NCBI RefSeq assembly: GCF_000003815.2
Contig: NC_049980.1
Coordinates: 21,899,249 to 21,963,248 of the forward strand
Length of the DNA stretch: 64,000 nt
From: Branchiostoma floridae
Taxonomy: Eukaryota > Chordata > Leptocardii > Amphioxiformes > Branchiostomatidae
Direction: 5' to 3'
The position numbers were made by a program, and so were the translations under genes. The notes under the pieces were generated by a model. The model was not told the origin of the DNA and did not search any database. It worked only from the letters and a program-made list of their open reading frames with translations. Below are positions 30,971-63,871 of the stretch, one piece after another. Each line of letters begins with the position of its first letter. The stretch's first letter is position 1.

Positions 30971-33900
30971 ATGGGAGAGATAAGGAACTCACGTGAATAT
31001 GGTAGCTTTAGGAGCTCAGTTTCTCAGAAGAAGGTAAGTAAACTTGATTTTTATTTGTCATAGACCATAACGTTAACATAAATTTTATAACCTTGTAACG
31101 TTATGTCGTTTTTATGTTACCTGATTTTACCTGACCGTTAGGCAGTACTGCTTAAATGACTTTCGATGATTTAACGTTTATTCATTTTTTCCTATTAGTG
31201 CTGAGCCAACTAGACTTTACACACAAAGCTTTAATTTTAAAGGTGTTTATTATACGAGGTCTATGGTCGATGACCCTTTCGTGCCACTGAGTCACAACAT
31301 GTTTGCTTGTATTGATTGCAAATTTATCAGATCTTGCAAACAGAGAAATTACTGGCTTAAACTATTGAAAAAAATGTTGTAAATTATGACTCTTCTTGAT
31401 TTCTAAGAATGCTGTAACTATTGAAAAAAAATGCTGCAAATTATGGCTCTTCTTGATTTCTAAGAATGCTTTAACTATTGAAAGAAAAATGTTGCAAATT
31501 ATGGCTCTTCTTGATTTCTAAGAATGCTGTAACTATTGAAAAAAAAATGTTGCAAATTATGGCTCTTCTTGATTTCTAAGAAATATTGTCAACATTCTGC
31601 CATAATTCCCAATATAAAAATTCCCTACAGATAAAGAGATAAACCTAACTGAACTCCTAATGTCTTAGTGTTCCTTTGGGAGCTGATAAACTAAAACTGC
31701 AGACCATTGAAAAAAGATACAACAAAGACATGAGGAGGGTTAAATTATTGAAATGCTGACCCTACATCTGCTTTCCTCTATTTGCGCCTTTCCTCCTACT
31801 GCAGGTAGTCGTCGATGACGATGACAGCAAGGTGTGGACCATGTACGATGCTGGCCCACGGAATGTGAAGTGTCCGTTAGTCTGCCTACCGCCTGTCAGT
31901 GGTACTGCAGATGTCTTCTTCAGGCAGATCATGGCCCTATCGGGACTGGGCTACAGAGTCATAGCAGTAAGCACACACACCTACATTTCCCCTATGAATG
32001 TTGTTTTCTTAATCTTATCTGTTTCATTGGACTTTCCTGTTACAATTCCCTACATTATATTTTGTATCAGAAAGAGCAACAACATTGAGAGCCAAAGAGA
32101 AAGAAGGAAGTTCAGTACTCCTTGTTTCAGTGTCCTATAATCACATCTGCTAGCTTTTCACATTGTGGTCCAATCTTGTTGGCATGCATTAAGTCCTACC
32201 TGTTCTCTTCCAGCTACAATATCCCGTGTACTGGAGTCTACAGGAGTGGATAGATGGCTTCCGAAAACTGCTGGATCATCTACAGCTGGACAAGGTGCCC
32301 ATGCCATATGCATAGAATTAGTTTTGGGGTCTTCAGTGGTTGTCATCCATAAAATTAAGTCGGTGCATGTGGCCTTAGCTTGTTAGCCATGAAAATATTT
32401 AATTCACTTATTGTAAGGAAAACTTATTATAATGAAATTAAGATATCAATGCCTAAAAATACGCTGCACATAAGATGAATTAAGAGATAACTATCTTACA
32501 TGTACTGTTCACAGATTCATATATTTGGAGCATCGCTGGGTGGGTTCCTGGGGCAGAAGTTTGCAGAAGCCACATACAAGAGCCCACGGGTGCACTCCAT
32601 GATATTGTGCAATGCCTTCAGTGACACCACTGTCTTTCAACAAACTACGACAGCACCAACGTAAGCACTGATAACAAAATACCCTCATGAATACCACTTC
32701 TGTCTTGAAGGTTGCAGTTCTTAAAAAAGACCATTTCAAATTTTACTAGAATAGCATTATAGTTTCCTTTGGACAATGCCGCATCAGTTTAATGTCTTGG
32801 GTGGGAAAAAACATAATTCATTGAAAAAATGACATACTGTGATAGACCCAAATACTACAAAATTCAACAAACCAAGCTGGTTATAATTTCAAATTGGTGT
32901 GGACTGATGAATAGTAATACAATCTGTCATGTACATTTGTATTTGACATTCTCTCATATAAAGTACTGTAATTCGCTTTGTCTTCTCGGTACCAAACTTT
33001 CACGGTCTGGGAAAATTTAACTAAATGTTCACTGTCGCGGCAAGTGCACATAAAAAAATCTGTGAATTATTTGTTATCAGTAATGATACGTTCAAGTTAC
33101 AGTCGTCACCGTGAAAACTGTGAACATAACAGTACATTGAAAAAATCAGGAATTACAGTACTTGTGTTTACCAGGTTTTGGCTGATGCCTGCCTTCATGC
33201 TGAAGAAGATGGTGATGGGAAACTTTACACAGGGCATGACTGAACCTGCTATAGCAGACTCTGTGGATTTCCTGGTGGAATGTGTGAGTTATCTCAACAT
33301 GGAATATAGAATAGGCTTTCATTCTGTACTGAGGTTGAAGCCTTTGTGATACGATGATGCTAAGTTTCAAAAGTGTTTTGAATGATACAAAGCTGAATGT
33401 GCATCTACCATGGTAATAAGATTCTCACTACAATGTCTGTACAATGTTACCAGTTGTAGCATCCAATGGCAAGTTTTGAATTTTTAAAAAAATTTTGTGC
33501 TACCGGTAATTATAAACTCCATATTCAGTTGTAATTGGGACCGTAGGGCTCAAAGTACTCTTTCTGTAGCATGTAATATGCAAGTTGAGTTTTAGTTGCA
33601 GTTTGAAGAAAAGGTTTTTCAAATACAAAAGCCTCAAATTTGTAGTTTTCAAAATAGGTTCTTGCTATCAAAAACAGTTTTTGATGCAAATTGTAATTGG
33701 GTATTTTGAGCCCTACAAGAATTGTGTCCACAGTTTACCATGTGCATGTGTGTGTGTTGTGTCCTTACAGCTAGAGGGTCTCCCCCAGTCAGAACTGGCC
33801 TCCAGACTCACCCTAAACTGTCAAGATTCCTACGTGGAGCCACAAAGGATCCAGAACATTGCCATTACAGTAGTAGATGTAAGTAGGATGGAGCCAGATC

Positions 33901-35658
33901 TTTATAAGCCCTTATAATTTCCTTTATATTAACTGCAGATGGATAGCCTCCCCCAGTCCGAGCTGGCTTCACGTCTCACCCTGAACTGTCAAAATGCCTC
34001 TGTTGATGGAGAGAAAATCAAGCAATTACCTGTCACAATCCTTGATGTGAGTGGCTGGGCTCTTTCCTTACTGCATGTCTCTTCAGGATTTTCTCTCAGC
34101 TTGTGATGTCACCTTGCTGCACATGTGGTGTCTCAGTCTATGGGAAGTGATGTCGGCCTAATTGATTTTCTTTTTCTGTGGTACTGAGTCTGGTAGGCAA
34201 TTGTATTCTGCATTATGCTAATGTGTGGAAAATGCCTTCGATTTGTTTGTGTAACTATGGCATGGTCAAGAAAATTCAGGTCCTTATACTTAATGACAAA
34301 GACAATGCCATTCCCAATCATCCATTCTGTTTGCTTGCTTTTCAGATGAATATTTTTTGTATCCCTCTTATATTCTTTTAAGCTGTACAAAACATTGTCA
34401 GTTGCAATTTCAGCTGTACAGTTAATTGTCCTCTAGCATACTGTCTTCTGCTTAGTGAAGCTTGTGATCTGTTTACCTGTCTTGCTAGTCCTTTCTTAGT
34501 ATAGACTATTTGTATGGTGCAAAACTTCAATCTTTGCAGTCTAATCTGTACTTACTCTTGCTTTATTTTCTCTTGGATACAGTGCAAGAGAAGGCACGTT
34601 GACAGTGTTTGTATTGAAACATTCTCTTATGGCAGTTTGTAAACTGTGTCACATATAATTTTGTCTCTTTGAGTTTCCAAGGAAGCTGGATACTCCTTCA
34701 ATATGGCAATGATAGAAAGCCTAGTAGTAACAATGATTGCATAGGAGGTTTACATTGTGTAATATAATGAACCAGGAAAATGCTGTAACTAATTTGTTGT
34801 CCTAGGTATTTGATGAGAGTGCTTTGTCCACATCTGTGAAAGAAGAGCTCTACAAATGTTACCCCAATTCCAAAAGGGCGCATCTCAAGTCTGGTGGCAA
34901 CTTCCCCTATGTAAGCAGAAGTGCTGAAGTCAATTTGTACATACAGGTATGATACCTTTCTCCTTTCATCAGTAAAAAATTTATGATTACAAGATATCTT
35001 AGGACAGTATGTGCAAGAGAAACTTTCTTGAATGCTGTAACACACATGGACCCCAAAATTGATCAAGTGCACACTGGATGATTGGAATGCTAAATGATAA
35101 TACAAAACTAGTGTTCAGATGTGACTGGTTGTCAAGGAATAGGCCCACTGGGCTTATTATCAATAGTACTGTTGTCATGTCCATACATCCATCCATCAGT
35201 CCCGTAGCTCAGGAAGCCGTAGGGGCGGTAAGACTGTTCACAAGAGACTTCCACTTCTTGCGGAATCATTAATCCATGCTCGGCGGGGGCGGCCCCTTGG
35301 CCGCACTCCTTCTGTTTTTTCCAAAAGTGTGTCATGTACAAAAGTACATTTGCTGAATCATTGGAGTTAATATAATAAAAGCTCTCACAGATAAAGACAC
35401 CACCTATTGGAATGATATGAATCACACATACAAGAGTAAACTGTACGTATGGCCTGGATCCTTCATGTTCGTTTTATTGTCCTTTTTATTAATTTCCAAA
35501 TTCATTACTGAGCTCTTGTCCATTGTCCTTAGATACACCTTCGTGATTTCCATGGCACTCGCTTCTCAGCCATCGACCCGGATATGATCACGGACGCTGA
35601 CAGGGAAGCCATCAAACAGAAGCTGGAGACAGATGGTGCAGAGGCAAACTCGGAGTAG
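30971..35658 (+). CDS. SPG21: Maspardin (SPG21), alpha/beta-hydrolase-fold protein; contains duplicated alternative exon
   Basis: In mammals a CD4-binding, endosome/trans-Golgi protein mutated in Mast syndrome. Exons: 30971-31033, 31805-31966, 32214-32294, 32515-32660, 33175-33283, then 33771-33878 or 33939-34046, then 34806-34946 and 35533-35658. Using one of the two duplicated exons gives 311 aa (human 308). Seen: the start [13 protein letters not shown] as in human MGEIK, the segment [19 protein letters not shown], the nucleophile-elbow motif [23 protein letters not shown], and the C-terminal [12 protein letters not shown]. Including both alternative exons would keep the frame but add 36 residues unknown in the family. 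Confidence 0.95.
31360..31580. repeat. Tandem repeat, unit about 57 bases, nearly four copies (SPG21 intron 1)
   Basis: Units start with AACTATTGAAA at 31360, 31416, 31473 and 31531 and run through CTCTTCTTGATTTCTAAGAA. The period is 56-58 bases, varying with the A-run length. Copies differ at only a few positions. Confidence 0.9.
32964..33160. repeat. MITE-like element ending 14 bases before an SPG21 splice acceptor
   Basis: Ends TACTGTAATTC and GGAATTACAGTA. The same element, in reverse orientation, occurs at 60628-60838, sharing the words GGTACCAA, CACTGTCG/CGACAGTG, ACCGTGAAAAC and the TACTGTAATT ends. The right end lies at 33160 and the SPG21 exon starts at 33175. Confidence 0.75.
33771..34046 (+). 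other. SPG21: Tandemly duplicated, probably mutually exclusive exons of SPG21
   Basis: Two exons of exactly 108 bases (33771-33878 and 33939-34046), both phase 0/0, encode [20 protein letters not shown]... and [20 protein letters not shown].... They differ mainly in their second halves ([16 protein letters not shown] against [15 protein letters not shown]). Each has a good acceptor (TTACAG, CTGCAG) and donor (GTAAGT, GTGAGT). The separating intron is only 60 bases, which would hinder splicing of both exons together. Human SPG21 has one exon here. The segment leads into the VFDES loop of the hydrolase fold. Confidence 0.9.
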
Positions 35659-38130: not shown

Positions 38131-38475
38131 TCACTCTCGTTTGTACACAGCATCTAAAGGTTTCCCCTTTGTCAACTTGTACCTTTTTATTTTCTGATAG
38201 TTCACATAGTTGCTCTTGGGTGAGACATTGGTTCTGTGGTGGAAATGGGCCAGGTTGTGTCTTCCTTTCAGCATGCGTCTGAGCAGCACCTCGATGCCTC
38301 CCCTGGTCTTCAGTCTGGTCTCGTAGCCGTAGACATTCCACCTCCTGGTGTTACTTGGCTGGTAGTTTCTCCCCATTGTCTTAGGGCAAGAGGGCTGTGT
38401 GAAACGTGGCAGGGCCCTGGACAGTCCTGATGTCAATAGTCTGGACCCCTGAACAATCAGGCTAGCCATAGCCAT
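38131..38475 (-). CDS. MRPL34: Mitochondrial ribosomal protein bL34m, 114 aa, with C-terminal extension
   Basis: Large-subunit protein of the mitochondrial ribosome. Seen: the N-terminal part is Ser/Arg/Leu-rich and lacks acidic residues, as expected of a mitochondrial targeting peptide. The bL34 core follows: GRNYQPSNTRRWNVYGYETRL, then GGIEVLLRRMLKGRHNLAH, matching the family pattern ending LRRMLKGRKSLSH. Human bL34m stops at that point (92 aa), whereas this frame continues for about 35 basic residues to VYKRE. The start was set at MAMASLIVQ (38475); an in-frame upstream Met at 38517 is probably 5' UTR, since candidate splice acceptors lie in between. Divergent from ABHD8. Confidence 0.88.
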   Translation of the reverse strand: MAMASLIVQGSRLLTSGLSRALPRFTQPSCPKTMGRNYQPSNTRRWNVYGYETRLKTRGGIEVLLRRMLKGRHNLAHFHHRTNVSPKSNYVNYQKIKRYKLTKGKPLDAVYKRE

Positions 38476-38979
38476 TTCTATAGTACAGTAGCTGCAGTAC
38501 AGTAGGTGTGCCAGCAACTGGGAAAAGTTGCGAATGCAGCAAACTGTCCTGTAAAAGAGGACTAACTTTAAGACATGATCTTCAGTTTTTCAAGGAGCTT
38601 TTAATTGAGATGGTTATCCTTAGTCTTATACTAAGAAATTAAATTTGCAATGAGTGATGAATGAAATTTTATTTTTACTAACCTGCAGAATGGCAATTGC
38701 TAAGTAAACAAATTAATCAAATCATATTAGAGTAGATGCCAAGAAAAGGCAACCCTGAAGGAGTCTGGCTAGCTGCAAACACATTTTTGAAAACCTCTAC
38801 TTTGCTCTACCTGATCTGTATCAACATGCCCCCCTCCCACAAACATGTGCACGTAGATTTAGAATGCATTTTAGAGGTTCCCCACACTTTCAATACGCTC
38901 TCAGCAAGTAAGACATGTACATTTGGAGTCAATATCCTGTTCAGTAACATTAGGAACTCGTTATAATTATTAGTACCAA

Positions 38980-39310
38980 CAAGACGACCTACTCTGTTTA
39001 TGACGGGACTGCAAAGCGCCGACCTCTCACGTCTTCTCGACCTTCCGTGCTGTCCTGTACGAACTCACGCGAGATTGAACAGGATTTCGCGAGACTAAAG
39101 ATCGTTTCACTAATTACTTGTAGATAATATCCATCCTCGTGCTCTTAACTTCCTTTAATGTACGTTACTCATCAGTTTTAGACCTTATGACTACTGTAAA
39201 AGATTATAAAAAAAAGAAATATATACGTAATTCTATATTATCTAGGCTTAATTGAATTCTAAGTCGGGGTTAAATGGGGAACTATTTATCTTCGAGCGGA
39301 TGGAGGTAAT
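38980..39310. promoter_or_regulatory. Candidate bidirectional promoter of MRPL34 and ABHD8
   Basis: A CpG-containing interval between the two divergent genes. It carries CACGCGAGAT at about 39066-39075 and TTCGCGAGAC at 39086-39095. Both match most of the TCTCGCGAGA palindrome (a BANP/Kaiso-type motif) known from CpG-island housekeeping promoters. No TATA box is seen. The promoter call is inference from position and motifs. Confidence 0.45.
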
Positions 39311-39312
39311 CC

Positions 39313-39398
39313 ATGGCCCCGAAGGAGCTCGGCAGGTTAAAGGTTAACATTCCGGTATTTGTTGATGTGCTCTCAGCAACAGCCGGGAGAATGCAATG
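39313..39398 (+). other. Probable 5' non-coding exon of ABHD8 with an upstream ORF
   Basis: The segment ends at a donor (CAATG then GTAGGT at 39399). The next exon has an acceptor at 39930 (TTTAATGTACAG). An ATG at 39313 opens a frame of 28 codons that, after this splice, closes about 11 codons later at TGA, well before the main start at 40050. A second short upstream ORF starts at about 39978. The exon's 5' limit is unknown. Confidence 0.4.
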
Positions 39399-40049
39399 GT
39401 AGGTGGGTGTGTTGTACGTTGTGTTGCTAGCTTTCAACAACTTGTAGCGTGATCGTCATCTTCGTGTAGATGTTTTTGTAACGATCACAAACACTGTCAG
39501 TTCATTTGACTGATCAAATCAGCTGGTAACGTGAAGTTTGAGGTAGGTGATTTTGAGCTTTCTGTTCGAGGAGTTAATTTCAAGGTCTCAAATGTTATCT
39601 TTAAAGGGCAGTCTGCAGCTCAGATCAGTACTGTTCTATTATATTTGGCACTACGGTTACAAAATTTTTATCCCACTAAAATTAGACAGCGTATAGATCT
39701 AAAGGTTACAACGCTGTATCAGGAAGTATTAAACATTATCTTCTTTATTCACTTTTAAAATTTCATGCCGAAAATTGTGTTATTTATTTTCCCTAATTAC
39801 ATTTCTTTAATCAGGTATCTGTAAATGCCATCTTACCATTCTCTCATCTGAGATGCAATGATGACTAGTTATCATATGAACTGATGATGTTGCATAATAA
39901 AACATAACTGTATTTTCGTTTAATGTACAGCTCTGCAACTATTGCTCTGCACAACTGGTGACGTGTGAAACCATCATGTTTGAGGGAACCAGGCAAAAAT
40001 CATTATGACGAGATAGCCACTGTTCCATACCACTCCCTGGCAGACAGTA

Positions 40050-43000
40050 ATGTCTGGGGAGGACCTGCGCTCCACCGAGGTACACACCACACAACCTCAC
40101 TCCGCACGGCCTCCATGGAGGAACAGGATCCGGCCGCTCCAGAAGAAAGAGCTTGTGGAGATCCGCCCCGGGCGCTGGCTGAAAATCCTGCACATTAAAG
40201 CAGCGGCAGGTGGCGGTGATCACAGGAGCTCAAACGTTGATGAAAGGCAGGATCAAAGTGTCGGCTGCCTGACTGTTAAAGGTGATAACACTGGCATGAT
40301 AATACCCAGTAAAAAGGTTGATGTTGGAGTAAACACCACAGAGGCCTTCATCAGTCGGAAAGAGTCAGAAGTAAATACTGCTCCAGGCAAAACAGAGTTT
40401 GACACTTCTCATCCAGAAATACCTCCTCTAGCAAACACAGAAGACTCCATAGAAACTACAGACAAGAAAGGTGACTTAAGAGATATCTTCAAAGATAAAA
40501 AAATATTTGAAACACCTGTGAAAGATGATGATATGCTAAAAGACAACTTCTCTTCATCAAGCAATTTATGTACAGCTAGCCAATTGGAACAAGATGATCA
40601 TGCATATGGTGACAAATCCATGAATTTAAGTCACTTGAACAAAGTAAATAATGATTCTGGAGGGTCCAGCCTTGTCATCTGCACAACAGAATCTTCCAAA
40701 TCTCTTGCACTTCTCGCAGAAAGTAGCACTGACAAGCTAAATCCACCAGAAAAGAACCTGGACTTACCATGTAGCACTAAGAGTAAGACGCACAACATTA
40801 ACCATAGTAACAGCAATGTCAATGACTCAGGGATTGTAAAGGACAAGTGTAAACTGGAGACTTTTTACGACAAAACTCGGAGTCATACCGCTCAAAACCA
40901 CCAGCTGCACAATGGGAGAGACATGCCATGGTTATCTGAGGATGATGTTCCCCCTTCAGATACAGTTCTGTTTTTCCTGCACGGGGTGGGTGGATCTTAT
41001 GAGGTGTGGATGGCTCAGATTGACTACTTTGCTGCTAAAGGCTATCAAATTGTTGCACCCGATTTGTTGGGACATGGACAAAGCTCTGCACCAGAGATGG
41101 GGTCTGCTTACCACTTCAGAGAGCATGCCAGAGACATGACAGCCATCTTTGAGCGCTACTGCGGGAAAAGGAATGTGGTGATTGGTCATTCATACGGGTA
41201 AGTATCAGAATAGCAATCTATCACCATGTGAATACCTGTATATAATTAATCTTTAATGGGAGGAGTGAATTGTTGTCATAGGAAACAATTGTCGTTAGTT
41301 GGTACACACAGCACCAAATATAAATGAACATTCTTCAACTATCCAAGATCTAAAAGGTAATCATGACATATAAGTAAACCATTTCCAAATAGGTCTAAAA
41401 TGTTTTTCTCCACAGACACAGACATGTTGTAAAGTGCATTCTGCTTTTGTGTATAAATTGATTGACCAGCAGAAAGAATGAAAAGAAGAGGCAGATGTAT
41501 CTGTTTCGTCATAAATTATGTAGGTCTGATTAGGTCAAATATAAATGCAGCAGGATAGTGAGACATCCAATTAATAATATTTGTCTTTTAGCCTTCATTG
41601 GACAAGTCATCACAATAAGGACAAATTGCATGACAGACTGCAGCTAAGGGTTTATCAATAAGATAGGCCAAAATCTATATTGCAGGGCGTGAAATCCTTT
41701 TTTTCTGCTACATTGTTCCTGCAATATTGCAAGTTGTCAGAAATTTTACCTGCAATCTGGAAAGAGTAGCATTCATGATATTTTGCATTGGCTAAAGCAA
41801 TGTTCATCTTGTCAAACTGTATTCTTTAACAAGAATGACAAGATCTTTGCATAGCATTTAATGCCTAGAGATCTCTATGATACCTGAAAGAGATTGCCAG
41901 CTGTAGCTGCTACTAAGTTAAACCTAAGTCTAGTATGCTTTAGCTACTTGGCTAAGTTGGGATTCATATTAAACTTGACTCTGTTAGCCTGCAAGTGTAA
42001 ATTGTAAGCTGCTTGCATTCTTAAATCTACCTGTACTGAACAATGTCTTTACTGCAAATTGTAGTCAGCAGATTGGTCTTTCAATCCCTGCTCTGCGATC
42101 AAGGTTACATTTATAAAGCCAATGTTGTATAGGCAGTACTCAAAGCTGATTACTTTGCGGAGGGCACTGAAGTGTATATTTGACTATTGTTGGCAATCAG
42201 ATACTGTAACATGTACTCTAAAAGTAGTATGGTTTCTGTAATTGATTGGACTTAAATGCTGCCACATGGTTATAAACTCAGGTTCTAAACTGTCCATATT
42301 GCTATTTGACTATCTATTGTAGATGCCGAAATGAATTATATTAAATATTTAATGAAGATTATTCATTGTGTTCTTAAGATGAGATACAGTCATTGGAAAG
42401 AGCCTATAAATATGAAATTAGTAGGAGTTACATTTACATAACATAATTAACCTCTATTTGTAGTTACCATGAAAAACAAAAACTACACTTTTGTTTTTAT
42501 ACAGGCATAACATTATATTTAGGTCAGTTTTGCCTTGGCTAAGGCTAATCCAATTTCATATTTTGGTTCTCAATTTTTTGCAGGGAATTGGTGGTGCGAC
42601 TTGTGTGACTAAAAAAATCAAAAATACTAATAAAGCATTAACCTACATGTATCAAAAACTACTAAGAAGCCACAATAACATTTCAAGCAAAGAATGTTCA
42701 ACTATCCCCCAAAGGAAATCTGTTACAGTAAGAATTAGGATACACGTACTTGATATTTGACGACAAAACAAAATGCAGCAACTTTGTGAACCAGGAATTT
42801 GAATCAGCATGGCCTTACATTGCAGTTCTATTGCTGACACCCAGTAAATGAGACTAACCCCAGGACATTGGCCTTTCCCAGGTGCACATTCTGCACCCTG
42901 CTGGCCCACGAGCAGGGACTGAGGATGAGCAGACTGGTCATGGTGAGTGGGGGTGCACCGTCCCCCCTGGAACCACAGCCTTGTCACATCTTCTGCCTCC

Positions 43001-48304: not shown

Positions 48305-50951
48305 CTATTCTCTTGGAATGGCACACAGATCAAAAGACACAGGGCTGTAGGTGATGATTCCCACTATCCCTACAGTAGATGGTTTAGCTGCTCCATCTGG
48401 CAGCTTGAAAGTGAAGTGCTGCAGCAGGTGGGTGAAGAACAGGAACAGCTCCATCTTGGCCAAATTCTCCCCCAGGCACATACGACGCCCTGTAGGCCAA
48501 AATAAGCCAAAAATGAGAGCAAAATATGGTTACTCACCAGTGGTTACTCACTGTACAAGGTACAAGTTAAAGTTCTGACTGCTGGCGTTATGCCATGCAT
48601 ACATGTCGAGCTGTGCAAGTACATCTAACCCTTATGGGACAGGAAACAACAGACAACAAACCAGAGTATCTGCATATGGAAGGCACTGCATGTTTTCTCC
48701 AGACTGCCTTGCTAACACAGATGCTACTAACAGCTCATCAGACCCCCTCCCCAGAAATGGTAGAGAGTGAACATTCAGTACAAATGATTCAAGTCCTATG
48801 AGGAAGTCAGTCTTACCTGTGGAGAAAGGAATGAATGTTGGATCCTTAACAAACTGCCCATTTTCACCGAGAAACCTTTGCGGCTTGAAGACCTCTGGCT
48901 CATGGTAGTGTACTGGGTCGTAGAAAACTGACCACAGAACAGGCCAAATCATGGTGCCTTCTGGGATGTCGTAACCGAAAAGGTTGGCATTCTTTGAAGT
49001 GGCATGAGGGAGTGACATTGGTGCAACAGGCTTTATGCGCATTACCTCCGTGATGACAGCCTCTGTGTAGGGCAGCTGACTGCGTTGTGTGATTGACAGG
49101 GCTGTGTCAGGTCCAACCACGCTGTCAATCTCCTCCTGTACCTTCTGCTGTACCTCAGGGTACAGCACCATGTACAGCAGGGCCCATGTCAGAGTGGTGG
49201 ATGTGGTCTCGGACCCAGCAACAAACAGGTCTGAAATCACATAATTCAGCTGGTCCTCAGTGAAGTTCTCCCTGTCCCCTGCCTCATCTTCTTGACTCAT
49301 CTCCAGCAGATAGCTGTCAATGAAGTCACGAATGTTAGAAGGGTCAAATGTGTTCTTGTGCTCTATCAGGTCTTCTCGGAGAGAACCTATTACCTCCTCT
49401 GCATTCTTTAGTACCTTGTCTACAGCCTTCCTGACTGCAGGGATGTGTCGTAATAAGGGGAAGAAGTTGGTCACTCCAGCCAAGTCCTGTTCTCCAAAGT
49501 TCTGATTGACTCTGTCCATCAAGTAGTTAAATTTAGGGTCACTGTAATCAAACCGTGCACCAAAAACGATGGAGCAGATGACATTGCTGACAGCATTTTG
49601 AAGAAGGGGCCTGACATTGAAGGGCGTGTTGGCTGTCTTTAGGATTTCTTCCTTCAGACCTTCAGCCTCCTCTAAGATCTTGCCTTCCAAGCTGCGTTTC
49701 CCAAATCCAAAATCACGCAGGCTCCTGAGGGTGAACTTGCGTTGCTGCTTCCACAATGAGCCATAAGGAAGGAACGCAATTCCTACAATATATGGGAAAA
49801 GAGCGTTTTGTACAATTCATAATGGACAATTGAAAAAAGTCTGAAAAGCTATAATTGCAACTTGCATTTTCATATCACTGAGTGCTATAACTACTGATCT
49901 TTATATTTGTGTGCTTGTATTAAGAAATTTACACTTGATTTTACCCTCTTTTCTGCTGTAAAGCTCAGAGTTTGGCTGTAAGATTGTAATACTACTTTGT
50001 GGGTATTCTTCATTCATGCTAGGTCCTGCCTGAATTATCTGTATGCTTCCAGAGAGTATACTGTAATGAAACTATCATCATTATCAACATCATCATAAAA
50101 ACCAAGGTCATTTAACTTAAAGGTGCATGGCCAAATCAAAACATCATCATGTGATAAAAGCTTACCACTTTTCATTCCAGTCGTCTTGTCAAACAAATAC
50201 ATGGATGGTCGGCTTGAGAAGTCTTCTCCTTTCCTGACCAATGCTTCATGAATAGCCTCATAGCCACAGAGTACAACAACATCCTTTGGTCCCATTCTGA
50301 TGCTGAACACATCTCCATACTTTTTCCTCATGGCCGTCAGCACTAGGTGTGGACTCTGTTGAGGAACAGGTAGATTAGCAATAAATTAGTGAAGTGGCTG
50401 TTCACTGACTGACCCTTACCATCTAAAATTTGTAGAAAAACTGAACAATTATGAGCAAAATGAATTTGGACATGTGTGATGCCAAGCTAAAAAAAAACTT
50501 TTTTAGACTACAGCTACATGCATACAACCAAAGTTTGTCCTTGAGCATAAAATTTAAGATATACCTTTATATAAATCTTTGGGCTCCAGAGTTGCTCTTT
50601 TTTTATCTGTATGCAATGCAGCCTAGACCGAGGTCTGCTAGCTGTTTCTGTCCTTGACCCCAAAAGGTTGAATGCTTACAGGGCAACTCATTATTTGTAC
50701 TGCTGGTAATGATATTCATTATGGGAACCGAAATGGTTGACAAAGTCACCCCATGACTACTAATCCTTAACACTGACCTTGCCAAGTGTGGGGATGTGTC
50801 CCAAGACTGGCCAGCCCCAGGGCCCTGGGGGGAGGTTCTTCCCAGGCCTGAGGTACCAGAAGGTCAGTAGAAGGACAAACACAAGGACGAGGGCTGTCTG
50901 TACATCACAGTAGGTGAACAGCCTGGCAGCAAGGCTGTGGAGCACAGACAT
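48305..50951 (-). CDS. Cytochrome P450, CYP2 clan (CYP2U1-like), 4 coding exons, 504 aa
   Basis: Membrane-anchored microsomal mono-oxygenase; substrate unknown. Exons 5' to 3': 50951-50778, 50355-50166, 49782-48817, 48489-48305 (174, 190, 966 and 185 bases; all phases agree). Seen: an N-terminal hydrophobic anchor (about residues 18-36), proline hinge [14 protein letters not shown], WxxQR-type helix C (SLWKQQRKF), I-helix AGSETTSTT, ExxR (EVMR), the PERF-like FKPQRFLG, and heme-binding [10 protein letters not shown]. Few exons with one very large exon resemble CYP2U1 rather than the nine-exon vertebrate CYP2s; this is suggestive, not proof of orthology. Upstream bases just before the Met (about 50952-50985) look like a spliced 5' UTR, as in the second copy. 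Confidence 0.92.
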
Positions 50952-52057: not shown

Positions 52058-52157
52058 NNNNNNNNNNNNNNNNNNNNNNNNNNNNNNNNNNNNNNNNNNN
52101 NNNNNNNNNNNNNNNNNNNNNNNNNNNNNNNNNNNNNNNNNNNNNNNNNNNNNNNNN
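52058..52157. other. Assembly gap (100 N)
   Basis: Exactly 100 N, the usual placeholder length for a gap of unknown size. Reading frames drawn through it are artefacts. Confidence 0.99.
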
Positions 52158-52415: not shown

Positions 52416-52515
52416 NNNNNNNNNNNNNNNNNNNNNNNNNNNNNNNNNNNNNNNNNNNNNNNNNNNNNNNNNNNNNNNNNNNNNNNNNNNNNNNNNNNNN
52501 NNNNNNNNNNNNNNN
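52416..52515. other. Assembly gap (100 N)
   Basis: A second run of exactly 100 N, 258 bases after the first, in the likely 3' UTR of the ROCO kinase gene. Confidence 0.99.
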
Positions 52516-58922: not shown

Positions 58923-61900
58923 ATGTCCATGCTCCACAGCCTTGCTGCTAGGCTGATTGCCTACTGTGATGTGCAGATAGGCCTCGTCCTTGTGTGTCTC
59001 CTTCTACTGACCTTCTGGTACCTCAGGCCTGGGAAGAACCTCCCCCCAGGGCCCTGGGGCTGGCCAGTCTTGGGACACATCCCCACACTTGGCAAGGTCA
59101 GTGCCTAAGATTTATAGCAGCCATTGGTTGACCCAATATCCACTATTTTGGTTCCATTTGTGACTATTAGCTACAAATAACCTTCTTAGTTTAGACTAGA
59201 TTAGATTAGACTAGGCTAACAGAAGGGTGTTGAAATACATTGTAGGTAGATCAGGCTAACAAAAGGGTGTTGGAACACAGAGGTTTCGGAAGACTCAGAG
59301 CACGGATGTCGAAACATAGGGAAGTGATAGCTGCCCTGAAATGCATTTATTATAATGTTAATTAGTGTCAACAGAACATGGCAACACCCAACAACAATAT
59401 GAAATCCGTAGTTCAAAACTTGTCCACTCCACCAGACTTATGTCTGCCATATTACAAAAAGTGATACACTAAATGCAGTATTTTCGGTGGTTGTACATTC
59501 ACGGTTGTCATGTTATTACTGCTTCAACGTGAACTCAAAACCACTGCGAAAATTTTTGTTCTCTTCAGGTTTTGGTCCAGAGGTTTATGATCAGGTCCGG
59601 ACCTGAACCTGATCCTTTATAGTCGACACCCTGACATAGTTTGGTTATTTAACCAATTTGATTAGAATAGAGAATTAAGCCTGATACATACACAGGACTA
59701 TAACTTTAAGTTTGTTGGTGAGATGACTTTCAAGACCAATATTGATATTTGAATTATTCCATAATGGTACTAACCTCATGATCAACTTGGATGTTTATTT
59801 TGTGGTAAATTATTGTTGACCTGTTGTTGCCCAAAGAAAGTAGAATATGAATTCAGAATAATCTAGACAATAAGTCTTACTTTATTTAACCTTTCTTGTA
59901 TAGATTACCTAATAATATATCTAAATAAAAATGAATGTATTTGTACATTGTTTGCATTTTGTTTAGGTTTCTGGGACTTAGGTTGTGGACTTAATGTTTA
60001 GTTTTGAACTCAGGTGACTATTCTAAAAGCAACCACTAGCACACTAAAAAGTCAATTATTTTTTCCAGCATCCACACCTAGTGTTGACCTCCATGAGGAA
60101 AAAGTATGGAGATGTGTTCAGCATCAGACTGGGACCAAAGGATGTTGTGGTACTCTGTAGCTATGACGCCATTCATGAAGCATTTGTCAAGAAAGGAGAA
60201 GACTTCTCAAGCCGACCGTCTTTGTATGTTTTTGATGAGATGGGTGAAACCAGAAATGGTAATCTTTCCTTTCACATTTTGTAGATAGGTTTTTCTAACT
60301 TTTTCTTATTGAACTACATTAATTGTACAAGCTTACATGTTTATTTGTAAAATTTTCATTTGTAAAATGGTGTCTTCTTACTGCTTCTTACTGGCGGTAA
60401 GAAACAGTAAGAACAACATTTTACTGTGGAAAACTCTGCCAGTAACTTATGTATATGTTGACTTTAATCAGATTTTGAAGAGATACGGTGCATGCTCAGA
60501 AGAGGCCTACAATACAACAAAGCAGTTCCACAAATACTGTCTCACAAAGTGACCAGCTAATTAATAACATACAGGAACTTCAAGTAACAATTTTCTAAAG
60601 TACATTTATCACCCTTTCACCTCTACATACTGTAATTCCTGATTTTTTCACTGTAATGTTATGTTCACTGTTTTCACGGTGACGACTGTAACGTGAACTT
60701 ATCATTACCGATAAAAAATAATTCACAGACTTTTTTCATGTGCACTTGCCTCGACAGTGAACATATAGTTCCGAGAACAAGTTCAATTTTCTCAGACCGT
60801 GAAAATTTGGTACCGTGAAGATAAAGTGATTTACAGTATACAAATGTCTATTGTTATCATTCAATCTGATATAAATGTTATATTCCATTTTCCCTTCTTT
60901 TACTGCAGGGCTAGTCTTCACTCCATATGGCTCATTTTGGAAGCAGCAGCGAAAGTTTGCACTCAAAAGCCTGCGTGATTTTGGATTTGGAAAACGCAGC
61001 TTGGAAGGCAAGATATTGGAGGAGGCTGAACGTCTGAAGGAAGAAATCCTACAGACAGCCAACACACCCTTCAATGTCAGGCCCCTTCTTCAAAATGCTG
61101 TTGGCAATGTCATCTGCTCAATTGTCTTTGGAGCACGGTTTGATTACAACGACCCAAAATTTAACTACTTGATGGAAAGGATCAATCAAAACTTTGGAGA
61201 ACAGGACTTGGCTGGAGTGACCAACTTCTTCCCCTGGTTACGACACATCCCTGCAGTCAGGAAGGCTGTAGACAAGGTACTAAAGAATGCAGAAGAAGTA
61301 AAAGATACTCTACACGAACTCATGATAGAACACAAGAACACATTTGACCCCTCTAACATTCGTGACTTCATTGATAGCTATCTGCTGGAGATGAATCGAC
61401 AAGATGAAGAAGGGCCCCAGGAAGGATTTGACGAGAATCAGCTTAGCCATGCGATTTCAGACCTATTTGTTGCTGGGTCCGAGACCACATCCACCACTCT
61501 GAGATGGGCACTGCTGTATATGGTGCTGTACCCTGAGGTACAGCAGAAGGTACAGGAGGAGATTGACAGCGTGGTTGGACCTGACACAGCCCTATCAATC
61601 ACACAACGCAGTCAGCTGCCCTACACAGAGGCTGTTATTGCAGAGGTCATGCGCATCAGCCCAATTGCAGCCATGGGAGCCATTCATGCCACATCCAACG
61701 ATGCCAACCTCTTTGGTTACGAGATCCCAGAAGGCACCATGATTTTCCCTCTGACATGGTCAGTTTTCTATGACCCTGTGCACTACCCTGAGCCTGAGAT
61801 CTTCAAGCCCCAGAGGTTTCTGGGTGAACATGGGCAGTTTGTCAAGGATCAAACATTCATTCCTTTTTCCATAGGTAAGGCTGACTTATGTCAAAATTGT

Positions 61901-63871
61901 TTCTCTATGTACAGTAAACTACTTATGGGAAGCATTAAATCAAATGTAGATGGACTGCAATCATCAGATACACAGAATAGGCAGAATCCTTCCTTACCAT
62001 ATGTTAGGCAAGCAAGCTCCTTATTTTTCAAATTAAACAATATCTAACATGCATGTGTTTGAGTTTATACAATGGTTATGTCAACTTATCAATATGTCAA
62101 ACAGCTTGCAGCCTAATGGCTGAATTGGTGTAGTAACATTACATTTGGAGTTAAGTAAAGCGCAGTAAAATTACTAACACATGCGCAGTAAAATTACTAA
62201 CACATACAATAACAAGTGTAGTTACCTTTGCCAGAATGGCTAAGGTTATGTTTTGGGCTTGTGAGTCTGTGTGTGTGTGTGTCTGTCTGTTAACAGCATA
62301 ACTCAAGAAGTCTAGGATGGATCCCGATAATATTTGGTAGGTGGGTAGGGGTCGGGAAAACGAAGGTCAAGTTCGATAATGGGCCCCCTAGCGGCTTGCT
62401 AAGGTACTGCAGCAGAACCTCAATTTTTGATATCTCGTGTTCTGGACATGCTGTGATCATGATTTTTGAGTGGTAAATAGCCCTCAAGGCAGAGAGTAAG
62501 TGCTGTGAGTTTGGGCCCCCTAGCGGCTTTTTTGGAACTGCAGGCGCCGGTTTCCTTTCAAACTTTGGATGAGAATAACTCTACAACGTGTTGACGGATC
62601 GTCATTATTTTTGGTATGTAGATAGAATGAGTGATGACTTACATAATGGTATACTAATTATGCAAATCAGCAGCTAATTTGCATAATTAATGAGGAAAAA
62701 TTATAAATCCACTACATTCCATGATAGGACTTTCAAACTTGTCACATATGTAGCTGGGAAGGAGAGAAATGTCGACAGATATCAATTATGCAAATGATGA
62801 CCTCATTTGCATAATTAATGAGAAAATATGAACATGTTGACGGATCATCATGTTTTTTGTATGTAGGTAGCGTAAGTGAAGACCTACATAATCAGATAAC
62901 AATTATGCAAATCAACAGCTAATTTGCATAATTAATGAGGATATTTTATAAATTCACTACATTCCATGATAGGGCTTTAAAACTTGTCACATATGTAGCT
63001 GAGAAAGAGAGAAATGTCAATACATATTTATCATGCAAATGATGATCTCATTTGCATAATTAATGAGAAAATATTAACGTGTTGACGGATCGTCATGATT
63101 TTCGGCATGTAGATAGCCTAAATGAAGACTTATATAATGTGATACTTATTATGCAAGTTAACAGCTAATTTGCATAATTGATTAGGAAAAGTTCATAAAT
63201 CCACTGCATTCCATTATAGTACTTTCATCAAAGTTGTCACATGTGTAACTGAGAAAGAGGGAAGAGAGTAAGAGGTGTATTTAAAGACTTTGAAAGAGAA
63301 TAAGTCAAGAATGGATCAAAGGATCATCATGATTTTTGGTATGCTGATAGCTTAAGTAATGCTTGATACAATTTGATATCAATTAATTGTAAATTGGGAT
63401 CTAATTTGCATAATAAATGCCGAAATTTTATAATCCAACTCCAAGCATTTAATTATAAAGAAAATGAAATGAGTAACGCATTTGTCTACAGACATCATTC
63501 TACATAACAAACCTGGTTTATTTGGCAAAGGTATGTGTTCGTGGAACTCTAGTTTAAAATACATTTAGTTTGTTAGATACTTAAAGTCCCAAGCACTAGT
63601 TTGGACTTGTACAATGTACCCTCTTCTTTACAGTACCGTGAGTTGCTGGTGTGTTTGTCAACAAAGTTTCCCTTTTGTCCCAACAGGGCGTCGCATTTGC
63701 TTGGGAGAAAATCTGGCCAAGATGGAGCTGTTCCTGTTCTTCACCCACCTGCTGCAGCACTTCACTTTCAAGCTGCCAGATGGAGCAGCTAAACCATCTA
63801 CTGTAGGGATCCAAGGGTTTGCAACCTACAGCCCTGTGTACTATGAGCTGTGTGCTATTAAACGAGAATAA
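58923..63871 (+). CDS. Cytochrome P450, CYP2 clan (CYP2U1-like), second copy, 504 aa
   Basis: Paralogue of the minus-strand P450. Exons: 58923-59096, 60069-60258, 60909-61874, 63687-63871, i.e. 174, 190, 966 and 185 bases, identical to the other copy. Seen: the anchor segment, [24 protein letters not shown]-helix [21 protein letters not shown], and heme motif FSIGRRICLG formed across the last junction. A spliced 5' UTR is likely (acceptor TTTTTCAG at 58900). The two proteins are nearly identical over long stretches but differ around substrate-recognition regions, e.g. [13 protein letters not shown] here against [13 protein letters not shown]. Intron 3 (1.8 kb) is filled with a tandem repeat. 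If the ROCO kinase gene is intact, this gene is nested in it on the opposite strand. Confidence 0.93.
60628..60838. repeat. MITE-like element, reverse-orientation copy of 32964-33160
   Basis: Runs from TACTGTAATTCCTGATTTTT to GATTTACAGTA in intron 2 of P450 copy 2. It contains CACGGTGACGACTGTAACGT and TTGGTACCGTGAA, which are reverse complements of words in the SPG21-intron copy. Confidence 0.75.
62580..63420. repeat. Diverged tandem repeat, unit about 240 bases, about four copies (P450 intron 3)
   Basis: Units begin with GTTGACGGATCGTCAT-like words near 62590, 62832 and 63078, and a more diverged one near 63310. Each contains GCTAATTTGCATAATTAATG and, in most, CACTACATTCCATGATAGG. A further decayed unit may precede at about 62310. 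Confidence 0.8.

What the first reader, a model, noticed from the sequence alone, without database searches (positions are those of the whole stretch)
33771..34046. Mutually exclusive duplicated exons in a maspardin (SPG21) gene
Two adjacent 108-base, phase-0/0 exons encode alternative versions of the same 36-residue segment. The first half is conserved ([15 protein letters not shown]) and the second half is diverged (YVEPQRIQ against VDGEKIKQ). The 60-base intron between them is probably too short for both to be spliced in, and single use gives 311 aa against 308 in human. The swapped region precedes the VFDES loop at the likely acid position of the fold, so isoforms could differ in ligand or partner binding. 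I know of no such duplication in vertebrate SPG21.
Basis: partly seen in the sequence, partly recalled or inferred. Interest (0 to 1): 0.78.

Follow-up and report, generated by a model that had tools for sequence, protein, structure and literature searches.

The report
Swappable exon pair in maspardin gene
A gene that in humans is linked to a motor-neuron disease (maspardin/SPG21) carries, in what appears to be a lancelet, two interchangeable copies of one exon separated by an intron so short that probably only one can be used at a time, so the animal can probably make two versions of this lysosome protein.

Summary
Exons 6A (33771-33878) and 6B (33939-34046) of a maspardin (SPG21) gene are both 108 nt, phase 0/0, with intact splice sites; either alone gives 311 aa. 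They share 71/108 nt and 19/36 aa. Residues 4-18 are identical despite 7 nucleotide differences, all silent (neutral P 9e-5). No other maspardin locus or copy of the exon was found in the genome. The 60-nt intron between them stands out: the gene's other introns are 220-771 nt, and among 156 introns estimated in three gene families of this genome the shortest is about 107 nt. Usable branch points sit under the ~50-nt steric threshold for human exclusive exons. Best reading: an old tandem exon duplication spliced mutually exclusively by steric exclusion. No transcripts could be examined, so exclusivity and use of both exons are inferred. The 'acid loop/ligand' idea is weakened: human SPG21 is described as lacking a catalytic triad and as a RAB7A effector, so partner binding or stability is likelier. 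A new member of a known kind; no report found in the papers searched.

The parts
30971..31033 (+). maspardin exon 1 (ATG start, 21 codons)
   Evidence: gene model; genome match
31805..31966 (+). exon 2
   Evidence: genome match
32214..32294 (+). exon 3
32515..32660 (+). exon 4, with nucleophile-elbow-like GASLGG (A108, S109)
   Evidence: numbering
33175..33283 (+). exon 5, donor TGT|gtgagt
33771..33878 (+). exon 6A, residues 188-223, 108 nt, phase 0/0
33879..33938 (+). 60-nt GT-AG intron between 6A and 6B; T-N-A adenines at +29, +36, +39 and +48 from the donor are at least 12 nt from the acceptor with no AG between
   Evidence: outlier against intron surveys
33939..34046 (+). exon 6B, alternative residues 188-223, 108 nt, phase 0/0
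34806..34946 (+). exon 7, VFDES turn and GGNFPYVSR (Asn at the usual His place)
35533..35658 (+). exon 8, ending in TAG

Best explanation
A 108-nt, phase-0/0 exon of the maspardin gene was duplicated in tandem in this lineage, and the copies are now used one at a time. Shown: homology, equal length and phase, intact splice sites, sequence constraint consistent with both copies being kept, a single locus in the genome, and an unusually short 60-nt intron. Inferred: because the usable branch points for exon 6B lie within about 50 nt of the 6A donor, U1 and U2 complexes cannot both assemble on that intron, so 6A cannot be joined to 6B; exon 5 is joined to 6A or to 6B, and the chosen exon to exon 7. 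Each choice gives a 311-aa protein, probably of the same fold, with a different loop ([10 protein letters not shown] or [10 protein letters not shown]) leading into the strand before the old acid turn. The isoforms most likely differ in partner binding, for instance to RAB7A, or in stability, not in catalysis.
For: Exact structure and frames. Residues 4-18 identical with 7 silent base differences, neutral P 9e-5; run of 15 identities, permutation P about 1e-5. If 6B had been neutral since the duplication, 13 amino-acid changes are expected in that stretch at the point estimate of dS (P of none about 2e-6) and 4.0 at its lower bound (P 0.02); none is seen. In the diverged half 14 of 18 positions, 4 identities included, keep positive BLOSUM62 scores. 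Donors gtaagt and gtgagt. 60 nt against 220-771 nt for the gene's seven other introns and against 69 myosin, 28 chaperonin and 59 kinesin introns with minima of about 111, 107 and 122 nt. Published threshold of about 50 nt between donor and branch point (passages of PMC5740500 and PMC7969005). Single locus.
Against: No transcript evidence of any kind. Joint inclusion and joint skipping both stay in frame, so only splicing mechanics could enforce exclusivity. The threshold comes from vertebrate work; some animals splice introns of 50-60 nt well (recalled). The best branch-point consensus in the intron (TTAAC) is at +54, over the threshold, though only 6 nt from the acceptor. No sign of competing RNA pairing: 44 of 100 and 43 of 100 shuffles do as well for the middle intron with its neighbours, 9 of 40 for the two outer introns. 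The synonymous estimates rest on about 12 sites.
Confidence: 0.8

Rival explanations
1. Alternative but not strictly exclusive cassettes: 6A and 6B are each optional, and a minority of transcripts carry both or neither.
For: All four combinations keep the frame. In humans, joining reads were found for 83 (22%) of the 377 clusters whose exon lengths are not divisible by three (PMC5740500, passage), so joint inclusion does occur in some clusters.
Against: Joining 6A to 6B needs a 60-nt intron with no T-N-A adenine beyond +48 that is 12 nt or more from the AG; none of 156 estimated introns is under about 107 nt.
Confidence: 0.1
2. 6B (or 6A) is a relic or hardly used exon: the duplication left one working copy and one drifting towards loss.
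For: The second half differs at 14 of 18 residues, 6B lacks the YVEP of 6A, and there are no expression data.
Against: No stop, no frameshift, same length, intact splice sites, silent-only changes over residues 4-18, mostly conservative changes elsewhere. Recent loss of use cannot be excluded from sequence; at the lower bound of dS the test against a neutral 6B is only P 0.02.
Confidence: 0.07
3. Both exons are included constitutively, giving a 347-aa protein with a tandem 36-residue repeat, as happened to the HLH exon of vertebrate COE/EBF factors.
For: Phase 0/0 makes it possible; the COE precedent exists (PMC2394523, abstract and one section).
Confidence: 0.03

Closest known systems
Mutually exclusive tandem-duplicated exons with steric exclusion (OGDH exons 4a/4b; alpha-tropomyosin, recalled)
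   Same: Adjacent exons from an exon duplication, short intervening intron, branch points closer than about 50 nt to the upstream donor (25-41 nt in human OGDH; PMC7969005, passages).
   Different: Here both exons are 108 nt and joint inclusion stays in frame; the whole intron is 60 nt; the gene is SPG21; no transcript proof.
Maspardin/SPG21/ACP33
   Same: Alpha/beta-hydrolase domain (Pfam Abhydrolase_1), 311 aa, A108, S109 and T201 at the same numbers as the human positions named in PMC12483374, Asn at the usual catalytic-His place.
   Different: I know of no duplicated exon in human SPG21 (recall; no human genome was searched).
COE/EBF H2d exon duplication (vertebrates)
   Same: Tandem duplication of a short exon in a conserved gene.
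   Different: There both copies became obligatory after a splice-site change (PMC2394523); here the short intron argues against joint use.

Membership tests
Mutually exclusive exon pair | Adjacent exons that are homologous | tested here: met
   19/36 aa, 71/108 nt, E about 2e-11
Mutually exclusive exon pair | Same or compatible length and splice phase, open frame, intact splice sites | tested here: met
   108/108 nt, phase 0/0, GT-AG on both sides
Mutually exclusive exon pair | A mechanism that blocks joint inclusion | tested here: inconclusive
   Steric: branch adenines at +29 to +48 usable, one at +54 only 6 nt from the AG; intron shorter than all 156 estimated. Frame: does not block. RNA pairing: no signal.
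Mutually exclusive exon pair | Transcripts contain one or the other, not both | not testable with these tools
   No RNA-seq or EST data at hand
Maspardin (SPG21) | Alpha/beta-hydrolase fold domain | tested here: met
   PF00561 E 4.6e-9 (6A form) and 3.9e-9 (6B form), over the curated cut-off
Maspardin (SPG21) | Residues A108, S109, T201 of the human protein | tested here: met
   Same residues at the same numbers
Maspardin (SPG21) | Full-length match to a curated maspardin family or a maspardin sequence | not tested
Maspardin (SPG21) | Catalytic triad broken | tested here: met
   Reads GGNFPYVSR where hydrolases have GH (canonical motif recalled); human described as lacking the triad
Maspardin (SPG21) | Binds RAB7A-GTP | not testable with these tools
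   Reported for human

The most novel reading that the evidence does not exclude
Lancelets encode a switch in a RAB7A effector: the 6A and 6B isoforms of maspardin differ in how they bind RAB7A or other endolysosomal partners, so tissue-specific exon choice tunes lysosome positioning and TFEB signalling. The alternative segment is the one in which the Old Order Amish frameshift (T201) of human Mast syndrome falls.
Probability: 0.15. Interest if true: 0.6.

Novelty: new member of a known kind. Interest (0 to 1): 0.42.

Why it matters
Maspardin is a conserved, apparently non-catalytic lysosomal protein whose loss causes Mast syndrome (SPG21), and which residues of its fold bind partners is little known. 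A natural pair of interchangeable segments, one half frozen and one half varied, marks which part of the fold must be kept and which part may tune partner binding, and makes that testable by swapping segments. It is also a clean case of a frame-neutral duplicated exon pair whose only likely enforcement is a very short intron, in a chordate outside the vertebrates.

Tried and rejected
Assembly or haplotype artefact: rejected. The exons differ at 37 of 108 bases, far beyond what I would expect of alleles, and blastn of the three introns against each other gives only chance-like matches of 7-13 bases. Third copy or relic exon: none (genome). Gene conversion of the first half: no recent event, third-position differences 6/15 against 11/18, Fisher P 0.30; older conversion not excluded. 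Positive selection in the second half: not supported, dN 0.56 against dS 2.0 (NG86, saturated). RNA docking/selector pairing: no excess over shuffles. Paralogue or retrocopy of SPG21: none; the 9 matches are this gene. Solved-structure searches to place the segment: the best matches cover only the N-terminal half, so the fold placement of exon 6 rests on recalled motifs. tRNA and Rfam (gathering threshold) scans of the window: nothing. Viral contigs: no relative. Amphioxus intron sizes in print: searches (listings) and passages of PMC8614042 gave no minimum, so I measured introns instead. PMC12707310 held none of the structure terms asked for. Of the three papers that co-mention SPG21 and mutually exclusive exons I looked at passages of two: one lists SPG21 in gene tables, the other mentions alternatively spliced SPG21 transcripts in human cells; no duplicated exon is described in those passages. 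The third was not opened.

Intron survey details. Introns are estimates from the overlap of neighbouring profile matches. Myosin: 142 rows listed, 128 used (64 introns), the other 14 with their neighbours (5 more). Chaperonin: 60 of 60 rows, 29 pairs, of which I dropped one of 87 nt because both pieces lie in one 551-codon open frame without a stop (search 50), leaving 28. Kinesin: 134 rows, 110 (54 introns), the other 24 with neighbours (5 more). Total 156; still prints the earlier 146. The tool had scored 65 of 346, 76 of 76 and 122 of 191 first-look candidates. Genes of a family are not independent draws. Matches that run 30 nt or more longer than their profile span, where an in-frame intron could hide: myosin 4 (198-309 nt); chaperonin 3 (48, 48 and 99 nt, no stops); kinesin 13 (33, 36, 36, 51, 54, 54, 63, 132, 180, 318, 390, 402, 408 nt). 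I looked at the ten of 33-99 nt: nine read open with no stop, or, in the 63-nt and one 54-nt kinesin case, with a single stop near the match's end; by eye they look like coding loops. GT-AG pairs of about that size exist in all of the nine scanned, so an in-frame intron there is not formally excluded.

Full report
What is there. The window holds a maspardin gene on the + strand with coding exons at 30971-31033, 31805-31966, 32214-32294, 32515-32660, 33175-33283, 33771-33878 (6A), 33939-34046 (6B), 34806-34946 and 35533-35658, with GT-AG junctions. Using 6A or 6B alone gives a 311-aa protein; both would give 347 aa and neither 275 aa, all in frame. Both single-use forms match Pfam Abhydrolase_1 above its cut-off. 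The human positions A108, S109 and T201 named in PMC12483374 (passages read) carry the same residues at the same numbers here, so the register between residues 108 and 201 fits. The genome that holds the window (513,431,437 bases in 431 contigs, unnamed; the size fits what I recall of Branchiostoma floridae, but the species comes from no call) shows no second maspardin: the 9 matches of the full protein are exons of this gene, and the exon-6 peptide matches exactly two places, 6A and 6B.

Is the duplication real and maintained? 6A and 6B share 71 of 108 bases and 19 of 36 residues. The identity is concentrated: residues 4-18 are 15 of 15 identical, a run with a permutation P of about 1e-5, and the 7 base differences there are all silent (neutral simulation P 9e-5). 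That simulation treats the pair as a whole. Asking only whether 6B has been neutral since the duplication, the point estimate of dS (0.80) predicts 13 amino-acid changes in that stretch (P of none about 2e-6) and the lower confidence bound predicts 4.0 (P 0.02); counting 7 instead of 6 silent differences, the lower bound gives 5.5 (P 0.004). So constraint on both copies is well supported but rests on about 12 synonymous sites. In residues 19-36 the exons differ at 14 of 18 positions (dN 0.56, dS 2.0, saturated), yet 14 of the 18 positions, the 4 identities included, keep a positive BLOSUM62 score, the exceptions being Y/S, P/G, A/P and N/Q. That looks like relaxed or tuned constraint on a loop and strand edge. 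The three introns around the exons show no homology to each other and there is no third copy in the window, so this is an old tandem duplication, not an assembly doubling.

Why mutually exclusive use is the best reading. The frame does not enforce it: joint inclusion and joint skipping stay open, and retention of the 60-nt intron stops after 12 codons. The spacing argues for it. The gene's other introns are 771, 247, 220, 514, 487, 759 and 586 nt. I estimated introns elsewhere in the same genome from exon-by-exon profile matches: 69 in myosin heads (minimum about 111 nt, from one search), 28 in chaperonins (minimum about 107 nt after dropping one pair that lies in a single open frame, from one search) and 59 in kinesins (minimum about 122 nt, from one search). 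None of the 156 is near 60 nt. These are gene families, so not independent draws, not every candidate was scored by the tool, and ten matches with 33-99 nt of extra open sequence look like coding loops but were not formally cleared. Within the 60-nt intron, adenines in a T-N-A context with no AG before the acceptor and at least 12 nt from it sit at +29, +36, +39 and +48 from the donor; a good consensus (TTAAC) lies at +54 but only 6 nt from the acceptor, and one at +26 has an AG after it. The human survey of mutually exclusive exons counts a donor-branch distance below 50 as potential steric interference (PMC5740500, passages), and OGDH exons 4a/4b are a worked example with branch points at 25-41 nt (PMC7969005, passages). 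Both donors (gtaagt, gtgagt) fit the consensus and the acceptors look ordinary. No competing RNA pairing stood out from shuffles. That lancelets obey the same threshold is an inference.

What the swap does. The segment is residues 188-223. It comprises a conserved stretch ([15 protein letters not shown], probably helical), a variable loop ([11 protein letters not shown] or [11 protein letters not shown]) and a strand (IAITVVD or LPVTILD) that runs into VFDES, where alpha/beta hydrolases carry their acid. This placement is by recalled motifs; the sequence searches of solved structures aligned only the N-terminal half in the best matches, and no structure was predicted. The usual histidine is Asn here (GGNFPYVSR), and human SPG21 is described as lacking a catalytic triad and as a RAB7A-GTP effector predicted to bind through its hydrolase fold (PMC12483374, passages). 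S109A still reaches endolysosomes, and the Amish frameshift T201Nfs falls inside this segment. So I expect the isoforms to differ in partner binding or stability. The RAB7A interface residues are not given in the passages I read, so a direct link to this loop is a guess.

Known or new? Tandem-duplicated, mutually exclusive exons are a known kind. For this gene I found no report: searches of the open PMC library for amphioxus with mutually exclusive exons (8 papers, listing only, none on SPG21 by title), SPG21 with mutually exclusive exons (3 papers, passages of two seen), SPG21 with amphioxus (0), SPG21 with exon duplication (0), and amphioxus with tandem-exon terms (12 papers, listing; one of them, on COE/EBF, opened). 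Subscription papers and gene-model databases were not searched, and a gene model with both isoforms may well exist in public annotation. The vertebrate COE/EBF case shows that a duplicated exon can instead become obligatory (PMC2394523, abstract and one section); the short intron speaks against that here.

Verdict. Observation confirmed; mutually exclusive use probable (0.8) but inferred; function not known in detail, most likely partner tuning of a non-catalytic lysosomal effector. A neat, testable new member of a known kind.

Noticed in passing
L007:600-1140 (G000:C2:31967600-31968140): In a kinesin gene three near-identical units of about 150 bp repeat an acceptor plus the start of one exon (NKSTCFAYGQTGAGKTHTM), with only about 67-70 nt between the profile matches; it looks like a recent partial-exon tandem duplication without clear donors in the first two copies.
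   Followed up: partly
38134-41198: A ribosomal-protein-L34 ORF (- strand, PF00468) lies next to a large alpha/beta-hydrolase ORF (+ strand, PF00561); this recalls the MRPL34-ABHD8 neighbours in human (recalled), a possible conserved gene pair.
   Followed up: no
48635-49816 (-) and 60875-62044 (+): Two similar long cytochrome P450 ORFs (PF00067, E 1.8e-87 and 4e-87) in opposite orientation about 11 kb apart.
   Followed up: no
52058-52157 and 52416-52515: Two runs of exactly 100 N, probably assembly gaps.
   Followed up: no
31355-31582: A tandem array of about 3.9 copies of a 58-bp unit in intron 1 of the maspardin gene.
   Followed up: no
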